Shown piece by piece: positions 1,792-11,872 of a stretch of 20,735 bases of DNA (its first letter is position 1; every line of letters starts with the position of its first letter). The stretch comes from a virus: IMG/VR virus record IMGVR_UViG_3300049727_000212, positions 1 to 20,735 of that record; one strand, given 5' to 3'. The notes beneath the pieces were generated by a model. It was not told where the DNA came from. It was given only the letters and a program-made list of their open reading frames with translations, and did not search any database. The translations under genes were made by a program, and so were the position numbers.

Positions 1792-2034
1792 TTAACTTGC
1801 TATAGGACCGTCAGCGCCGAAGCCATCAATATCCGCCAACGCAATTTTATTTGTGCCATTGTTGAGATTGACAACAGTTGATGTGTTGAGCGAAGAAAGA
1901 ATTGTTCCTATCGCCCACTTTGGATTAAGCTCACGTGTGGTAATCATATTGACTTTTGTATTGCGAATTCTTGGATTGTTTTTGTCAATACCGGAAACAA
2001 TTCGTGAGAGGTCGGAAGGATTAAATATTGTCAT
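1792..2034 (-). CDS. Small tail-region protein, 80 residues, unknown function
   Basis: This 80-residue frame (MTIFNPSDLSRIVSGIDKNN to GFGADGPIAS) ends two bases before the start of the large virion protein, as expected in a compact operon. It has no membrane segment, cysteine motif or recognisable domain. The sequence is polar with Asn-rich stretches and hydrophobic patches (NMITTRELNPKWAIGTILSSL). Its ATG is only a few bases from the left end of TnpB element A, so the element separates it from the tail-tip gene. No clear Shine-Dalgarno site is seen upstream, and the element may have changed its leader. It is probably a minor virion or assembly protein, a guess from position alone. Confidence 0.6.
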   Translation of the reverse strand: MTIFNPSDLSRIVSGIDKNNPRIRNTKVNMITTRELNPKWAIGTILSSLNTSTVVNLNNGTNKIALADIDGFGADGPIAS

Positions 2035-2146
2035 TGGATTATAGCAAGGAAACCTCGGGGCTTGCCCTTGGGAGGAATGCCACGCCTTTCTTAAAAATTT
2101 ATTTTTAAATTATTCAATTATACAGGTCAACATATATTATATATTG

Positions 2147-2152
2147 TATAAT
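2147..2152 (+). promoter_or_regulatory. Probable -10 box for tnpB of element A (leaderless)
   Basis: TATAAT sits 7 bases before the tnpB ATG at 2160, so a transcript starting at the usual distance would begin at or very near the ATG. There is no Shine-Dalgarno sequence between the box and the ATG, and no convincing -35 box. Element B has the same TATAAT-7-ATG arrangement. Confidence 0.45.
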
Positions 2153-2159
2153 GTAATAT

Positions 2160-3269
2160 ATGACAAAACTTTCTTTTAAAATTAAACTAAATACTAATGA
2201 ACAAGAGCAAAAACAATTAAAAGAATTAATGGTTGCTTATAATAATGCTTGTAATTATATAAGCCAAATTGCTTTTGAAAAGAAAGTTTTCAATAATTTT
2301 TCACTTCATCATCTTTGTTACAAAGATGTAAGAAAGATATATAATTTACCTGCTCAATTTACAATTTATGCTTTAGCTAAAGTAGCAGATGCATATAAAA
2401 CAGAATTAACTAAATCTCATAAAGAAAAACGAGAACTATCTTTATGTAAATTCAAAAAATATTCTGCTGTTACTTATGATTATCATTTATTATCTTATGG
2501 TAAGAACAATATAATTTCAATTAAAACCTTAGAGACAGGAAGATTAAAAGTTTTTGGTCACATTTATGATAATTCTAAAATTCCTTTTTTCAAAGGCGAA
2601 GCCGATTTAATTTACATTAATAAAAAATTCTATATTGTACAAACCATTGATGTTCCAACATCTAAGCCAAAAGATATTAAGGATTATTTAGGTATAGATT
2701 TAGGTATAGTCAAAATATCTACCGATTCCGATGGAGACTATTATTCTGGAGATATAATCGAAAGAAAGCGATTAAAATATAATCTCCAAAGACAAAGACT
2801 CCAAAAAGTAAATACAAAATCTTCCAAGCGACATCTTAAAAAGATGTCTAACAAAGAAGCAAGATTTAGAAAAGATGTTAACCATTATATTTCTAAACAA
2901 ATAGTCGAAAAAGCTGAACACACTTCACAAGGAATAGCATTAGAAAATCTAGTTCAATTCTTTGATAAGACAAGAGTTAGGAAAGAACAAAGAAATTCAA
3001 GAGCTTCTTGGTCTTTCTTCCAGCTTCGTAATTTTATTAATTACAAATCTATTCTAAAAGGCATTCCTATTGTTTTAGTCAATCCGAGAGATACATCTAA
3101 AAGATGTAATGTTTGTGGTTGTATTGATTCAAATAATAGAAAATCTCAATCTGAATTTAAATGTGTGTCCTGTGGACACACCGAAAATGCAGATATAAAT
3201 GCCGCAAAGAATATAAAATATTGGGCTGCTGTCAACCAGCCTATTGTATCAGCTTGCTCTGCAAGCTAG
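2160..3269 (+). CDS. tnpB: TnpB RNA-guided nuclease of element A
   Basis: This is a 369-residue TnpB. In this family the RuvC-like nuclease uses an RNA transcribed from the element's right end to cut DNA next to a short motif. The three RuvC acidic residues are visible: D180 in YLGIDLG, E262 in GIALENL and D345 in ENADINAAKN. A zinc ribbon (CNVCG, then CVSCG) lies between the last two. A basic segment (SKRHLKKMSNKEARFRKD) precedes the second RuvC motif. Length and motifs look intact, so the protein may be active. It resembles the TnpB of element C (shared RFRKD-NH-ISK block and short N-terminus) more than that of B. Codons are strongly A/T-biased compared with the phage genes. No TnpA partner is present. 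Confidence 0.93.
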   Translation: MTKLSFKIKLNTNEQEQKQLKELMVAYNNACNYISQIAFEKKVFNNFSLHHLCYKDVRKIYNLPAQFTIYALAKVADAYKTELTKSHKEKRELSLCKFKKYSAVTYDYHLLSYGKNNIISIKTLETGRLKVFGHIYDNSKIPFFKGEADLIYINKKFYIVQTIDVPTSKPKDIKDYLGIDLGIVKISTDSDGDYYSGDIIERKRLKYNLQRQRLQKVNTKSSKRHLKKMSNKEARFRKDVNHYISKQIVEKAEHTSQGIALENLVQFFDKTRVRKEQRNSRASWSFFQLRNFINYKSILKGIPIVLVNPRDTSKRCNVCGCIDSNNRKSQSEFKCVSCGHTENADINAAKNIKYWAAVNQPIVSACSAS

Positions 3270-3304
3270 GTACAAGCCTTGGGGCTTGCCCCAAGGTAGG
3301 TGAC
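3150..3304 (+). ncRNA. Predicted reRNA/omega-RNA scaffold of element A
   Basis: TnpB guide RNAs normally overlap the 3' end of tnpB and end beyond the right end. Here three tight hairpins follow one another: GTGTGTCC/GGACACAC (3163-3181), AGCTTGC/GCAAGCT (3251-3267, reaching the TAG stop) and CCTTGGGG/CCCCAAGG with a CTTG loop (3277-3296). The guide would begin at about 3305 (GTAGGTTCACTTC). The 5' limit is arbitrary. Confidence 0.4.
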
Positions 3305-3317
3305 GTAGGTTCACTTC

Positions 3318-5585
3318 TTAGGCCGCAACTAATTCAGCAACATAGCGAGTTTTACGGCATCTGTCCATTGATAAGTCAACATCAATAGACTGCACAAGGC
3401 AGGTACCATATCCGTCTGCGTCAATAGCCGCCCATAAATATAATTCGGGGCGAAGGTCCGGTAATGTGAATTCGATGTTTCGTTTTGCCTGAGTAATATT
3501 ATTTGCCAAGATTGCACAAACGGTATTTGCTGTTGCCTGGTCTGCTATCGAAGCGGAAATGAGAATATAATAAAATCTATCGCCCAGGTAATTTAATGCT
3601 GTCTTATCGCTCACGCTGGCTTCGTCGGAATAATGAGATACAATTGGGTTGCCCTCGCTGTCAGAACCAATCACCGTAATGTCGTTGGCGATTGTTTCAT
3701 TCAACATAATTTGCCGAGGGGCCGGGTCAGCAAGCATGGCGACATAAGAAATATCTGCGTTTGGAGTGGTTTGCTCTGATACGCCTTGTTCATTCATAAG
3801 CGAAGTGGCAGAAATAAACGGAACGCCATATCCGCCAATCGAATTGCTTATGAACCAATCACGAGTTGCGTAATACCAAACGCCGCCGATGTCATCTAAT
3901 ATCCACCCGGTGTAGGTAAGGACTTCGTTTTCTATGAAGTCGAGGGCGCTCATGCCGTCTGCTGGCCGATAGAGCGGTTCGGTGCCTGAGTCGGCGGAAG
4001 GAAGCGGCGTATCATCCCAAATTGGAATGACAATCTCAACATCGGCTTCGGTAATCACAAAGCCGTCTACGTCATCCTCGCTCACGTACCCGGCCAGCTT
4101 CAAAAGGTCGGTGATAACCTGACAGTGCGAAGCGCCATCCCACGACTTCGACGAACTCAAGAGGAAGTGAGCCAGCTTCTTGCGCATCGAAACGGCGTTG
4201 ACCGTCACACGGCTTGCTGAACCGTCTATGAAGTCGGGGATGTCCGAAAAGCCGACGAATATTGTATAGGGTCCGCCATTGTCCGTCAGAAGGGCATAAT
4301 CCGGGTCGTTAAGGTCGTCTTCGCTCGTTCCGCCGTGATTGCTTGGCAAATCGTAGTAAGCCCGTAGTTTGCGATTTTGCATGTCTTTGAGGGCTGTCCA
4401 TTCATCGGCGGGATTGTCCAATGTGAACTTGAATGTCTTCTGGCTGCGGTCGGCATTCAGCGTCATCGAAGCACTTATCGGATTCAGAATCGTGTTGGTC
4501 GTGTATTGGCGTGTACCGAGTGCTCGTTCGCAGTGAACGTAGTTGATGAAGTCCTGAGCCGTGTAGAGGTTGCCAAATATCGCCGCATTCCCGCCGCCAA
4601 TTCCGCCAACACCCGTCGAACCGGCTGCGCTCGTCAATGTTATGGAATAGCCAAAATTGTTTTGCGGAGCTAATGACGTGTTGTAAGTCACGGTTGGCGA
4701 GAGAGTACAGTTGGTGCCGAATGATTTATCCGCATTTGCCTCTAACGTTGGCTGGGCGGTTAATGGGTATTTGAGTGGGAAATTTGGAGTGGTAAGGGAA
4801 GCGCTGCCCGGATACATCAATGGCGAGAAATTAAAGAGCGCATTGATTGGCGTTGATGAATTATAAAAACTCACTCCTGCCGCTTCTGTAATGACCGACA
4901 ATGCTGTTCCGCCAGCAGGTTTATCCGCCGAAGTGGTATCAAGAGTCCCGCCAACGTTCGCAATGAAATACCCGCCCAGGTTCGACGAAATAATAATGTA
5001 CTTCGACCGATAAGGCAGGATGGTAATTTGAACGTCTTTGCCCGTTATGTCCTGAGACGATGAAATAGAGCCAGTTGCAATCGGGGCGTTTGGTTGTCCT
5101 GCCCCTGTCAATGTAGCCGTATTTCTCGTATCGTATAATTCACAAGTTCCGTTACTATGTAGAAACAACGAAAAATACTTACCGAACGACATATCGAACA
5201 GTTGATAGGCGCTTGTCTTTGGTTTGGTGTAGAACCAGGTTTCGACAAAGAATCCAGTGTTGCGTGGAAATATATACTTGCTGATAACCGGAGCGCCAAC
5301 CGTTCCGAGAGAATGAAGCGCATAGTCAGTTGCACCACGAACGCTATGTTGTTCCCATTTGGTCGTGTCGGTATTGAAATCGGTTAGTTTGAATTTAGGC
5401 TGCGTTGCCCAGCTATCTTGGTATTGATATGGCTGTATGATTAACGTAGAGCCGTCAACCGTTCGAATGATGCCGCTGTTAGTCGTTCCGCTTGCTGTCA
5501 AATTTAATTGGCTCACGGCAACACTCAAAGAAAAACCCGGCGAAGTCACAAGTGACCCGCTAATATCCATATCAATGACTAACAT
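3318..5585 (-). CDS. Tail-tip / baseplate-hub-like protein with LamG-like N-terminal part
   Basis: This protein has about 755 residues from the ATG at 5585 (MLVIDMDISGSL). An earlier ATG at 5615 lies inside a hairpin-U-tract structure, so the downstream start is preferred. Residues around 75-215 (YIFPRNTGFFVETWFYTK, then FSLFLHSNGTCELYD) resemble a concanavalin/LamG-type carbohydrate-binding beta-sandwich. The C-terminal third, with a segment like MSALDFIENEVLTYTGWIL, resembles the tail-hub proteins that cap siphophage tails. Position directly after the tape measure supports a distal tail or hub role, and the LamG-like part could bind host glycans. Both fold assignments are by eye. Element A is inserted just past its stop, leaving the frame intact. 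Confidence 0.75.
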   Translation of the reverse strand: MLVIDMDISGSLVTSPGFSLSVAVSQLNLTASGTTNSGIIRTVDGSTLIIQPYQYQDSWATQPKFKLTDFNTDTTKWEQHSVRGATDYALHSLGTVGAPVISKYIFPRNTGFFVETWFYTKPKTSAYQLFDMSFGKYFSLFLHSNGTCELYDTRNTATLTGAGQPNAPIATGSISSSQDITGKDVQITILPYRSKYIIISSNLGGYFIANVGGTLDTTSADKPAGGTALSVITEAAGVSFYNSSTPINALFNFSPLMYPGSASLTTPNFPLKYPLTAQPTLEANADKSFGTNCTLSPTVTYNTSLAPQNNFGYSITLTSAAGSTGVGGIGGGNAAIFGNLYTAQDFINYVHCERALGTRQYTTNTILNPISASMTLNADRSQKTFKFTLDNPADEWTALKDMQNRKLRAYYDLPSNHGGTSEDDLNDPDYALLTDNGGPYTIFVGFSDIPDFIDGSASRVTVNAVSMRKKLAHFLLSSSKSWDGASHCQVITDLLKLAGYVSEDDVDGFVITEADVEIVIPIWDDTPLPSADSGTEPLYRPADGMSALDFIENEVLTYTGWILDDIGGVWYYATRDWFISNSIGGYGVPFISATSLMNEQGVSEQTTPNADISYVAMLADPAPRQIMLNETIANDITVIGSDSEGNPIVSHYSDEASVSDKTALNYLGDRFYYILISASIADQATANTVCAILANNITQAKRNIEFTLPDLRPELYLWAAIDADGYGTCLVQSIDVDLSMDRCRKTRYVAELVAA

Positions 5586-8727: not shown

Positions 8728-8842
8728 TTATTTCTTATTTCTGAGTGCGTGATTCGAAAAATTTAACAAAGTTTCATCGGGCTAATTCCCCTTGCTTTAG
8801 CTATGGGGATACAGCCCGATACCTTAGTGCAACCGAAGGTTG

Positions 8843-8872
8843 CTGACAAAAAGCAAAAAATAGCACTATAAT
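8843..8872 (+). promoter_or_regulatory. Probable promoter of the interrupted tnpB (element B)
   Basis: CTGACA (8843-8848) and TATAAT (8867-8872) are separated by 18 bases. The ATG at 8880 follows the -10 box by 7 bases with no ribosome-binding site, so the transcript would be leaderless. A small CAACC-GAA-GGTTG hairpin (8830-8842) overlaps the upstream edge. Confidence 0.55.
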
Positions 8873-8879
8873 ATATATA

Positions 8880-9519
8880 ATGTCTAACTCTACTATACAA
8901 CTTGCTTACAAATACAGATTGTATCCAAACAAGCCAGAAATCAAGGCTCTTGAAGATACATTTGAAACTTGTCGTCAAGTTTATAATAGTATGTTGAATA
9001 ATCGAAAATATGAATATGAAGTCAATCAGAAATCTGTATCATATAATATTCAACAAAATTATCTTCCATCTTGGAAGCCTGACCACGAAGAACTTTCAGG
9101 AATACATTCTCAAGTTCTGCAAAATGTAGTCAAGAGAGTAGAGTTGGCTTTTCAAGCCTTCTTCAGAAGAGTCAAGGAAGGTGATACTCCTGGCTATCCT
9201 AGACACAAAGGAAAGAATCAATACAAATCAATCACTTATCCAGGTAGTGGTTTTGATATTATTAAAGGCAAACTACATCTTTCAAAAATAGGTGATATTG
9301 CTATTCGTGTACACCGTCCAATAATTGGACAAATCAAAACTTGTACTATTACCAAAAAAGGGAAATACCATTATGCTAAATGGTATGTATCATTCACAGT
9401 TGAACAACCTATTCCGTCACCTAATCAATTTTCTGAAGAAGAATTAGGTATTGATGTTGGGATTATAAAATTTGTAGCTTTTTCAAATGGTGATTTTATT
9501 GAAAATCCAATATTCTTTC
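8880..9519 (+). pseudogene. tnpB: 5' part of tnpB of element B, disrupted by element C
   Basis: Residues 1-213 of a TnpB with the classical N-terminus (YKYRLYPNKPEIKALEDTFE) and the first RuvC acidic residue D192 in LGIDVGI. The true frame breaks within the codon for R214 at 9519. Beyond that the reading frame runs into element C and stops at 9584 after about 20 unrelated residues. Joining base 9519 to 10788 completes the CGT codon and continues in frame into the 3' part, giving 402 residues, a normal TnpB length. The truncated protein lacks E276, the zinc ribbon and D385, so it cannot be a complete nuclease. Confidence 0.9.
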
Positions 9520-9690
9520 GTCAACAACCCCACCCACGAGGGGTGGGGCTTGCTACAATCGCCGCTAGGCGGCGAGAGCAATAGGTAGATTGACTGCTAC
9601 CCTATTAGTATTTAGCAAAGCTAAACCTAATTTTTGTATATTTTTTGAAGCATTATAATCTGCATTATCAACGTGTCCGCAAGACACGCA
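9520..9690 (-). ncRNA. Predicted reRNA/omega-RNA scaffold of element C
   Basis: The 3' end of the element C tnpB and its right end form two perfect hairpins on the minus strand: TCGCCGC-CTA-GCGGCGA (9571-9555), with the stop codon in the loop, then CCCCACCC-CTCGT-GGGTGGGG (9548-9528). The guide would begin at 9519 on the minus strand (GAAAGAATATTGG), which is tnpB sequence of element B. The 5' limit is arbitrary. Confidence 0.45.
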
Positions 9691-10662
9691 ATGGAATATT
9701 GCTTGGTTTTTTCTGTTTTCTTTAGAACAAAAACCACATATATTACACGTTCTTGAGGTATATGCAGGGTCAACTATTAGGAGTGTCACTCCTAATAGTT
9801 GACATTTATAAGTAATGAATTGTCTTAATTGAGCAAAAGACCAACTCATTCTTTCGTTTCTATTTTGTTTGCGTACCGTTACTCTATCATTTATATGCGA
9901 TAGCTCTTCCAGAGCTATCGCTGATTGAGTGCCCTTAGCTTTAGAAACTAAATACTTCGATATTTGATGATTTATATCTTTTCGGAATCTTGATTCTTTT
10001 TTACCAAAAGATTTTAATCTTCTTTTTGCAGAGCGTGTTCCACGCTCCTGCAATCTTTGCCGATAAGAATGATATTTCTTACGCTTGTTTTCTATTATAT
10101 CTGATGAAAATATTTTACCAGTTGAATCAACAGCTATATTTTTAACACCTAGGTCTACTCCTATGACGCCTTCGGCGTCATAGGGTGAAGTTTCTGGTAA
10201 TTCTAATGTAACTAAAAGATAAAATTGTTTATTTTGACAAACTAAATCAACTTGTCCTTTTCTTAATTTAAATAATTCTTTATTATAGACTTGAATTGGT
10301 ATATTCAATCTACCATTACTTGTCCATATGGAAACAGAATTATCTTTAAGAGTCAAACATCTTGCGTCGTAAACGACGGCAGATGTTTGACTAAAGGAAT
10401 TAGGTTTTTTAGAACGCTTTACTTTATACGATTGAGCTATTACATCCATAGCTCTAATCAATAATTGAGAAGAGAATTTCGGCATCGTTTCACGATGCCC
10501 TTGATAGAAAGCATCTTGAATTTTAATTTTATTATAGATTTTAGAATCAAAAGCTTGTTTAGAAAGTTGATTACAGACAGAATTAAAATCCTTCATAGTG
10601 CGCCAAAGCGCACTATGAGATTCTTTGGTTGTTAACAATTTAACTTTTAATACTGTCTTCAT
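9565..10662 (-). CDS. tnpB: TnpB RNA-guided nuclease of element C
   Basis: This is a 365-residue TnpB from the ATG at 10662 (MKTVLKVKLL). The frame is open seven codons further upstream, but this start matches the N-terminus of the element A protein and the promoter spacing. RuvC residues are D170 (GVIGVDLG), E252 (AIALEEL) and D335 (DNADYNAS). The zinc ribbon is C306/C309 and C325/C328. The basic block SRFRKDINHQISK is shared with the element A protein, so A and C are one subfamily. All motifs are intact. The coding region holds at least seven perfect or near-perfect stem-loops (9769-9803, 9897-9921, 10029-10050, 10160-10184, 10351-10392, 10481-10499, 10593-10618), far denser than in the phage genes. 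Because it reads with the late operon it may also be transcribed from phage promoters. Confidence 0.93.
   Translation of the reverse strand: MKTVLKVKLLTTKESHSALWRTMKDFNSVCNQLSKQAFDSKIYNKIKIQDAFYQGHRETMPKFSSQLLIRAMDVIAQSYKVKRSKKPNSFSQTSAVVYDARCLTLKDNSVSIWTSNGRLNIPIQVYNKELFKLRKGQVDLVCQNKQFYLLVTLELPETSPYDAEGVIGVDLGVKNIAVDSTGKIFSSDIIENKRKKYHSYRQRLQERGTRSAKRRLKSFGKKESRFRKDINHQISKYLVSKAKGTQSAIALEELSHINDRVTVRKQNRNERMSWSFAQLRQFITYKCQLLGVTLLIVDPAYTSRTCNICGFCSKENRKNQAIFHCVSCGHVDNADYNASKNIQKLGLALLNTNRVAVNLPIALAA
9769..9803 (-). repeat. Perfect 17-bp stem-loop inside tnpB of element C
   Basis: GTCAACTATTAGGAGTG (9769-9785), one base, then its exact reverse complement (9787-9803), within codons just upstream of the zinc ribbon. 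It is the longest perfect hairpin I found in the window. Confidence 0.9.
10351..10392 (-). repeat. Perfect 12-bp stem with inner stem inside tnpB of element C
   Basis: AGTCAAACATCT (10351-10362) pairs with AGATGTTTGACT (10381-10392). The loop itself contains CGTCG/CGACG. It lies in codons for the conserved SAVVYD region. Confidence 0.88.
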
Positions 10663-10671
10663 ACATATATA

Positions 10672-10701
10672 TTTATACATCACTTATGGTGACACCTGCA
10701 A
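10672..10701 (-). promoter_or_regulatory. Probable promoter of tnpB in element C
   Basis: On the minus strand TTGCAG (10701-10696) and TATAAA (10677-10672) are 18 bases apart. The preferred ATG at 10662 follows 9 bases later with no ribosome-binding site, again suggesting leaderless translation. Confidence 0.4.
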
Positions 10702-10787
10702 AATATATGGTATAATAAAAAAATAAATAAAATAAATTACCTGGCTAACCGCACCCACAAGGGGATGCGGCTTCCGCCAGGACTACT

Positions 10788-11356
10788 GTGAAGAAGAAAA
10801 GAATCTAACCAAAGCGCAGAAAAAACTAAAAAAGAAAAAACATCAAACAAAGGCTTATAGAAAAGCAGCACACACTGTTTCGAATATACACGAAAGAATT
10901 AAAAACAGAAGACATAATTTTCTACACCAAGAAACAAGAAAAATTGTAAACAAATATGGTTCAATTTACCTTGAAGAACTTCAAGTTGATAACATGAGTC
11001 GCAGACCTAAACCAAAACCTGACCCAGAAAATCCTGGACAATATCTACCTAATGGCGCAAGCGCCAAGACAGGATTGAATAAATCAATAGCGGACGTTTC
11101 TTGGTCAATGTTTCGTAATTTTCTAACCTACAAAGCTGAAAACGCTGGTGGAATAGTACATACGAATAATCCTGCATACACATCGCAAATGTGTAATAAA
11201 TGCGGATACATTGATGCAGAAAATAGAAAAAAAGAAGTGTTTTTATGTTTGCATAAAGACGAATTTGGCAATTATGATTGTTTGAATTCAGACCACGCAG
11301 ATACAAATGCAGCTAAAAACCAAATAACTGTAGGACATTACAGTTTGGCGGCGTGA
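10788..11356 (+). pseudogene. tnpB: 3' part of tnpB of element B
   Basis: This is the downstream half of the interrupted gene, in frame from the GT that completes R214 through EEEKNLTKAQKKLKKKK to the TGA at 11354. It supplies the basic linker, the second RuvC acid (E276 in YLEELQV), zinc-ribbon cysteines C349/C352 and C367/C378, and the third RuvC acid D385 (HADTNAAKN). Numbers refer to the restored protein. The second cysteine pair is spaced C-x10-C instead of the usual C-x2-C. An internal ATG at 10994 could start a 120-residue fragment, but no ribosome-binding site supports it. The half alone lacks the first RuvC motif. Confidence 0.88.
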
Positions 11357-11399
11357 GCCGCCTAGAAGCCCCTGCCTTTAGGCATGGGGAGTTTGTCAC
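11250..11399 (+). ncRNA. Predicted reRNA/omega-RNA scaffold of element B
   Basis: The 3' end repeats the pattern of A and C. GGCGGC-GTGA-GCCGCC (11347-11362) carries the tnpB stop in its loop, followed by CCCCTGCC-TTTA-GGCATGGGG and a short tail to GTCAC. The guide would begin at 11400 (ATTTCTGCTTG), inside the gp10-like gene. The 5' limit is arbitrary. Confidence 0.42.
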
Positions 11400-11872
11400 A
11401 TTTCTGCTTGTTCGACGATGTACTTTGCGTGTTTCAGCAATGGGTAAAGAGGAGGGGCGTCGGCAATCGACTGCTCAATAATCGGACGCCTACGCATTTT
11501 CTTGCGTGGTTCGTCTGGTTCGCCGGGGCGTTCCATATAGCCGGAATAGGGCGCTGTATTGGTGAAGGTCGTACAGGTGCCACCGGGCAATTTGTCGGTC
11601 GTCACATCCCAGCCATCAACAAAGTTTTCTTCCTGCTTGTTGATAAGCGCATCGAAGGCTGGTATAACGTCACGAGCGGTAGAATAAAGCCCCGGCTTCA
11701 TCTTACGCAATTCGGAATTTGGGATTGCGCCTTGAGAATTGGTAATCAATTCTTTTTTGACGGCTTTTGCCCAATCCTTTTGCGTTTGATAGAGCGCATT
11801 GTGAACAGCCGTTGCTCGTGCTTTTATCGTGCGAACGAGTTGATTTATGTTGGTTTCAAAAGTTACGTTCAT
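11396..11872 (-). CDS. HK97 gp10-like tail/neck protein, C-terminus cut by element B
   Basis: This is a 158-residue basic protein. Its N-terminal helical half (INQLVRTIKARATAVHNALYQTQKDWAKAVKKEL) and later segment with TNTAPYSGYMERPG and arginine-rich RKKMRRRPIIEQSI resemble HK97 gp10-type proteins, which act in head-tail joining or tail completion. Its ATG overlaps the stop of the tail-chaperone extension (ATGA). The final ATG-TGA is created by element B: the stop comes from the element's GTCAC end. In the uninterrupted arrangement the frame would continue LNFSNHALRNKK and stop at a TAA immediately before the tape-measure ATG, giving 170 residues. Loss of these 12 residues may be tolerated. 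The location between chaperone and tape measure is unusual for this family, so the assignment is moderate. Confidence 0.72.
   Translation of the reverse strand: MNVTFETNINQLVRTIKARATAVHNALYQTQKDWAKAVKKELITNSQGAIPNSELRKMKPGLYSTARDVIPAFDALINKQEENFVDGWDVTTDKLPGGTCTTFTNTAPYSGYMERPGEPDEPRKKMRRRPIIEQSIADAPPLYPLLKHAKYIVEQAEM

What the first reader, a model, noticed from the sequence alone, without database searches (positions are those of the whole stretch)
9500..9548. Guide of the inner TnpB would target the gene of its rival TnpB
In this family the guide is the sequence just past the right end. For element C that is GAAAGAATATTGG (minus strand from 9519), which lies in tnpB of element B, with TTCAC as the adjacent motif in the empty site. 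Element C would then cut intact copies of element B and spread into them by repair. In a cell or mixed infection carrying B-only elements, this is element-against-element targeting.
Basis: inference. Interest (0 to 1): 0.72.

Follow-up and report, generated by a model that had tools for sequence, protein, structure and literature searches.

The report
Transposon guide matching its interrupted host transposon
In a phage genome, one small tnpB-carrying mobile element has landed inside the tnpB gene of another, and its guide RNA would therefore match that gene when uninterrupted; but a guide that matches its own empty insertion site is the normal design of this element family, so this is a neat nested example rather than a new kind of targeting.

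Summary
The anatomy is confirmed. Element C is 9520-10787 (1268 bp, minus strand). Removing exactly those bases restores a stop-free tnpB-B frame of 402 codons, with TTCAC directly before C's left end and GAAAGAATATTGG directly after its right end. Relatives in other phage contigs share the right end (..TTGAC^) and the motif TTCAC/TTCAT. A covarying stem and a pseudoknot that pairs the last bases of the element fix the guide start at 9519. TnpB-C keeps its RuvC D/E/D residues. So C's predicted guide RNA would match the empty tnpB-B site perfectly.

That follows by construction for any IS200/IS605 TnpB, whose guide is its own flank. Retention, homing and gene drive into element-free alleles are already described. 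"Rival targeting" is an incidental result of where C landed. The reach is narrow: 0 of 78 distinct tnpB-B relatives carry TTCAY at the homologous position, all have at least 2 mismatches in the 12-nt seed, and no tnpB in the scanned collections carries the exact site. Other members of C's family sit beside non-tnpB genes, so there is no sign of a preference for tnpB. Cleavage and expression are untested. Verdict: real, nested, ordinary mechanism.

The parts
9520..10787 (-). Element C, a 1268-bp tnpB-only IS200/IS605-type insertion, no target-site duplication
   Evidence: Exact deletion restores the tnpB-B reading frame; both ends match relatives L004, L011, L015
9565..10683 (-). tnpB-C, 372 aa from GTG (a possible ATG start is at 10662); RuvC residues D177, E259, D342 kept
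   Evidence: Pfam OrfB_IS605 and Cas12f1-like_TNB; NCBIfam guided_TnpB E 4e-49; catalytic motifs invariant in the family
9500..9519 (-). Predicted guide of C (GAAAGAATATTGGATTTTCA); the same bases are codons of tnpB-B
   Evidence: Sequence; guide start set by the right-end boundary and pseudoknot
10788..10792 (-). Transposon-adjacent motif TTCAC directly 5' of the left end of C
   Evidence: the same position is TTCAC in L004 and TTCAT in L011 and L015
10740..10781 (-). Left-end subterminal hairpin of C
   Evidence: DNA fold z = -3.9 over 10730-10787
9520..9604 (-). Predicted reRNA scaffold of C: stem I, variable stem, right-end hairpin, pseudoknot 9594-9589 (GUCAAU) with 9525-9520 (GUUGAC)
   Evidence: RNA fold of 9520-9640 z = -5.3; stem I 100% and pseudoknot 97% paired in 6 family members, 4 pairs changed on both sides, no slid register comes close
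8880..9519 (+). 5' part of tnpB-B, interrupted after the first base of an Arg codon
10788..11356 (+). 3' part of tnpB-B, resumes in frame
8768..11399 (+). Element B as a whole; left boundary is inferred and uncertain by a base or more, right end ..GTCAC
   Evidence: B relatives L029, L030, L033 and L036 end GAGTAGTCAC

Best explanation
Element C is a tnpB-only member of the IS200/IS605 superfamily that inserted just 3' of a TTCAC inside tnpB of an unrelated tnpB element (B) in a tailed-phage genome. Its tnpB transcript runs through the right end, where the last ~85 nt fold into the reRNA scaffold and the next ~16-20 nt, read from tnpB-B, form the guide. TnpB-C with this reRNA would cut any DNA molecule carrying TTCAC-GAAAGAATATTGG uninterrupted, that is, the same phage locus without C, and repair from a C-carrying copy would put C there. 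This is retention or homing at its own insertion site. That the site is another element's tnpB is incidental. Shown by sequence: boundaries, restored frame, motif, scaffold covariation, catalytic residues. Inferred from characterised relatives: expression, guide length, cleavage, repair.
For: Exact restoration of tnpB-B. Shared right end TTGAC^ and motif TTCAY in independent phage contigs. L011 and L015 flanks join at the start codons of a thyX-like and a holA-like gene, which supports the boundary rule. Covarying stem and pseudoknot adjoining the guide, in the same place as the pseudoknot of ISDra2 omega-RNA (PMC10097598). Intact RuvC motifs. No terminator-like site on the minus strand at the right end. 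Guide-from-flank, donor-joint cleavage, proposed homing and plasmid gene drive are reported for this family (PMC8612924; PMC11870625).
Against: No RNA or cleavage data. No Y1 transposase tnpA in the contig or in six relatives' contigs, so mobility depends on a tnpA in trans. No promoter above chance. No B-only allele of this locus was found, so the target is reconstructed, not observed.
Confidence: 0.8

Rival explanations
1. Selected element-against-element targeting: C-type elements favour tnpB genes of other elements and use guides on a conserved tnpB segment to invade many B-type elements.
For: The guide sits in a fairly conserved part of tnpB-B (the ENPxFFR codons; rank 121 of 1187 20-nt windows for conservation across relatives).
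Against: 0 of 78 distinct B relatives have TTCAY at the homologous position. The best guide matches have 3 mismatches of 20 with at least 2 in the seed, where double mismatches abolished cleavage in ISDra2 (PMC10097598). L011, L015 and L004 are not in tnpB genes. No nested tnpB among 100 loci, though intact genes were favoured by the search.
Confidence: 0.06
2. Inert nested insertion: C interrupts B but makes no functional guide complex, so nothing is targeted.
For: No tnpA nearby; promoter matches not above chance; tnpB copies are often inactive (general knowledge).
Against: Intact ORF and RuvC residues, intact ends, and a covarying scaffold kept in register with the guide.
Confidence: 0.14

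Closest known systems
ISDra2 TnpB and reRNA (IS200/IS605; Karvelis et al. 2021, PMC8612924; cryo-EM PMC10097598)
   Same: TnpB with RuvC residues; guide from the flank past the right end; motif directly 5' of the insertion; pseudoknot formed by the last scaffold bases; cleavage of the empty donor joint.
   Different: Motif TTCAC/TTCAT instead of TTGAT; no tnpA in the element; the tnpB is a short, distant relative (372 aa); located in a phage inside another tnpB.
TnpB gene drive of IS200/605 in plasmids (Mears et al. 2025, PMC11870625)
   Different: Shown for plasmids; here the replicon is a phage and the interrupted sequence belongs to another tnpB element.
TldR, phage-encoded TnpB-derived RNA-guided repressors (PMC13418256 abstract)
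   Same: Phage-borne TnpB homologues with guides.
   Different: tnpB-C keeps all three RuvC residues and intact transposon ends; TldR proteins are nuclease-dead transcription factors (nuclease loss from general knowledge).

Membership tests
IS200/IS605 superfamily, tnpB-only (IS1341-like) element | TnpB with OrfB_IS605 and zinc-ribbon domains and the RuvC D-E-D triad | tested here: met
IS200/IS605 superfamily, tnpB-only (IS1341-like) element | Insertion 3' of a short fixed motif, without target-site duplication or terminal inverted repeats | tested here: met
   Restored frame and TTCAC; TTCAC/TTCAT in relatives
IS200/IS605 superfamily, tnpB-only (IS1341-like) element | Subterminal hairpins at both ends | tested here: met
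   DNA folds z = -3.9 and -3.7
IS200/IS605 superfamily, tnpB-only (IS1341-like) element | Y1 transposase tnpA in the element (not required for the tnpB-only group) | tested here: not met
   No PF01797 match in the contig or in six relatives' contigs; consistent with the tnpB-only group
RNA-guided TnpB (OMEGA) nuclease system | Structured reRNA from the tnpB 3' end and right end, with a pseudoknot next to the guide | tested here: met
   (prediction and covariation in 6 sequences; no RNA data)
RNA-guided TnpB (OMEGA) nuclease system | Guide-directed cleavage next to the motif | not testable with these tools
   Needs biochemistry or plasmid interference
Element-against-element targeting system | Guides of the family fall on other elements' genes more often than chance | tested here: inconclusive
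   L011 and L015 sit at thyX-like and holA-like start codons, L004 in no tnpB: no sign of it, but the sample is small

The most novel reading that the evidence does not exclude
In mixed phage infections, C acts as an RNA-guided drive that both inactivates a competing tnpB element and converts B-only phage genomes, so that nesting of tnpB elements is a recurrent competitive strategy aimed at the conserved RuvC-I-proximal part of tnpB.
Probability: 0.06. Interest if true: 0.55.

Novelty: new member of a known kind. Interest (0 to 1): 0.27.

Why it matters
It is a clean natural case in which one TnpB's guide is written in another TnpB's gene, with both the empty site and the boundaries readable to the base. 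If active it would extend TnpB gene drive to phage genomes in co-infection. The mechanism itself needs nothing new, and the predicted reach is limited to near-identical B copies.

Tried and rejected
Exact search for TTCACGAAAGAATATTGG in viral contigs: one hit, L005, which is not a tnpB; rejected as chance. Exact search for the 20-nt empty site in genome contigs: none. Close relatives of tnpB-B by single-protein scan of viral contigs: none; the best relatives are 43-46% identical. Close relatives of the phage through DNA and terminase: none, so no B-only allele could be read. Rfam: no match. A nuclease-dead TldR-like role was rejected because the RuvC residues are present. A guide match elsewhere in the window was rejected: the best TTCAY-flanked site has 11 mismatches of 20. 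Papers on nested tnpB elements were searched; no described case of a TnpB guide lying in another tnpB was seen in the titles and abstracts listed; one IS605 tnpB interrupted by an IS21-like element is reported in Halanaerobium (PMC7290912).

Full report
Setting. The window is an entire 20,735-bp virus record with tailed-phage terminase, portal, coat and tail tape-measure genes on the minus strand. It holds three tnpB elements: A (tnpB 2160-3269, +), B (tnpB split into 8880-9519 and 10788-11356, +) and C (tnpB 9565-10683, -). C and A belong to the same TnpB group (43% identity); B belongs to a different one with the HTH_OrfB_IS605 domain.

Observation. Removing 9520-10787 restores tnpB-B exactly, with no stop in 402 codons. 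On the minus strand the empty site is TTCTTCTTCAC^GAAAGAATATTGGATTTTC. Relatives of C in other phage contigs (54-64% identical; L011, L004, L015, L108) share the right end ..TTGA(C)^, and those with a recognisable left end have TTCAC or TTCAT directly before it. L011 and L015 give independent checks: their joined flanks meet at the start codon of a thyX-like and a holA-like gene. Neither half of tnpB-B has an extra stop, so the insertion looks recent (inference).

Guide RNA. The last 121 nt of C fold far better than shuffles (z = -5.3). In six family members stem I (5 pairs) is always paired, with changes on both sides at three pairs, and a loop GUCAAU pairs with the terminal GUUGAC in 97% of cells; no slid register comes close. 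In the solved ISDra2 complex the pseudoknot uses scaffold bases -6 to -2 next to the guide (PMC10097598), the same place. This puts guide position 1 at 9519. TnpB-C keeps D177, E259 and D342 in the RuvC motifs and scores above the cut-off of NCBIfam guided_TnpB. No terminator-like site lies at the right end on the minus strand.

Meaning. A TnpB guide always copies the DNA past the right end, so it always matches its own empty site. Cleavage of the donor joint and homing-like reinstatement were shown or proposed for ISDra2 (PMC8612924), and gene drive into IS-free plasmids has been reported (PMC11870625). That C's guide matches uninterrupted tnpB-B is thus expected from C's location and needs no special targeting of rivals.

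Reach. Of 78 distinct tnpB-B relatives, none has TTCAY at the homologous position, one has NTCAY, and the best guide matches are 3 mismatches of 20 with at least 2 in the first 12. In ISDra2 double mismatches in the first 12 abolished cleavage. The guide segment is moderately conserved (rank 121 of 1187 windows), so the sequence match decays slowly, but the motif is not conserved. Only near-identical B copies should be cut, and none is held in the collections searched.

Limits. No RNA, cleavage or read-level data; the contig is probably a fragment; no tnpA was found, so new transposition would need help in trans, whereas homing would not. The family sample for insertion-site preference is small.

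Verdict. Observation confirmed; interpretation correct as a formal prediction but ordinary for the family, and not evidence of element-against-element selection.

Noticed in passing
window 2028-2050; L011 about 2897; L015 about 2900: Three members of this tnpB group (A, L011, L015) sit exactly at the start codon of a divergent gene: the motif (T/G)TCAT is the complement of ATGA(A/C), so the gene keeps its ATG while the element lies directly upstream. This may be a harmless-site strategy or survivorship.
   Followed up: partly
window 2045-3321: Element A is a complete tnpB-only element of the same group with right end GGTGAC^ and motif GTCAT, so one phage contig carries three tnpB elements and no detected tnpA.
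   Followed up: partly
window 11396-11400: The right end of element B supplies the stop codon of the phage gene at 11396-11872; depending on B's exact left boundary, the uninterrupted gene could have run about 12 codons further, to just before the tape-measure gene.
   Followed up: partly
L108 about 2890-2960: A C-family tnpB in a 379-kb phage contig keeps its right end but lacks a recognisable left end, possibly an immobilised copy.
   Followed up: no
G002 (441-kb phage contig of L004): Five tnpB-like genes of different groups in one large phage contig.
   Followed up: no
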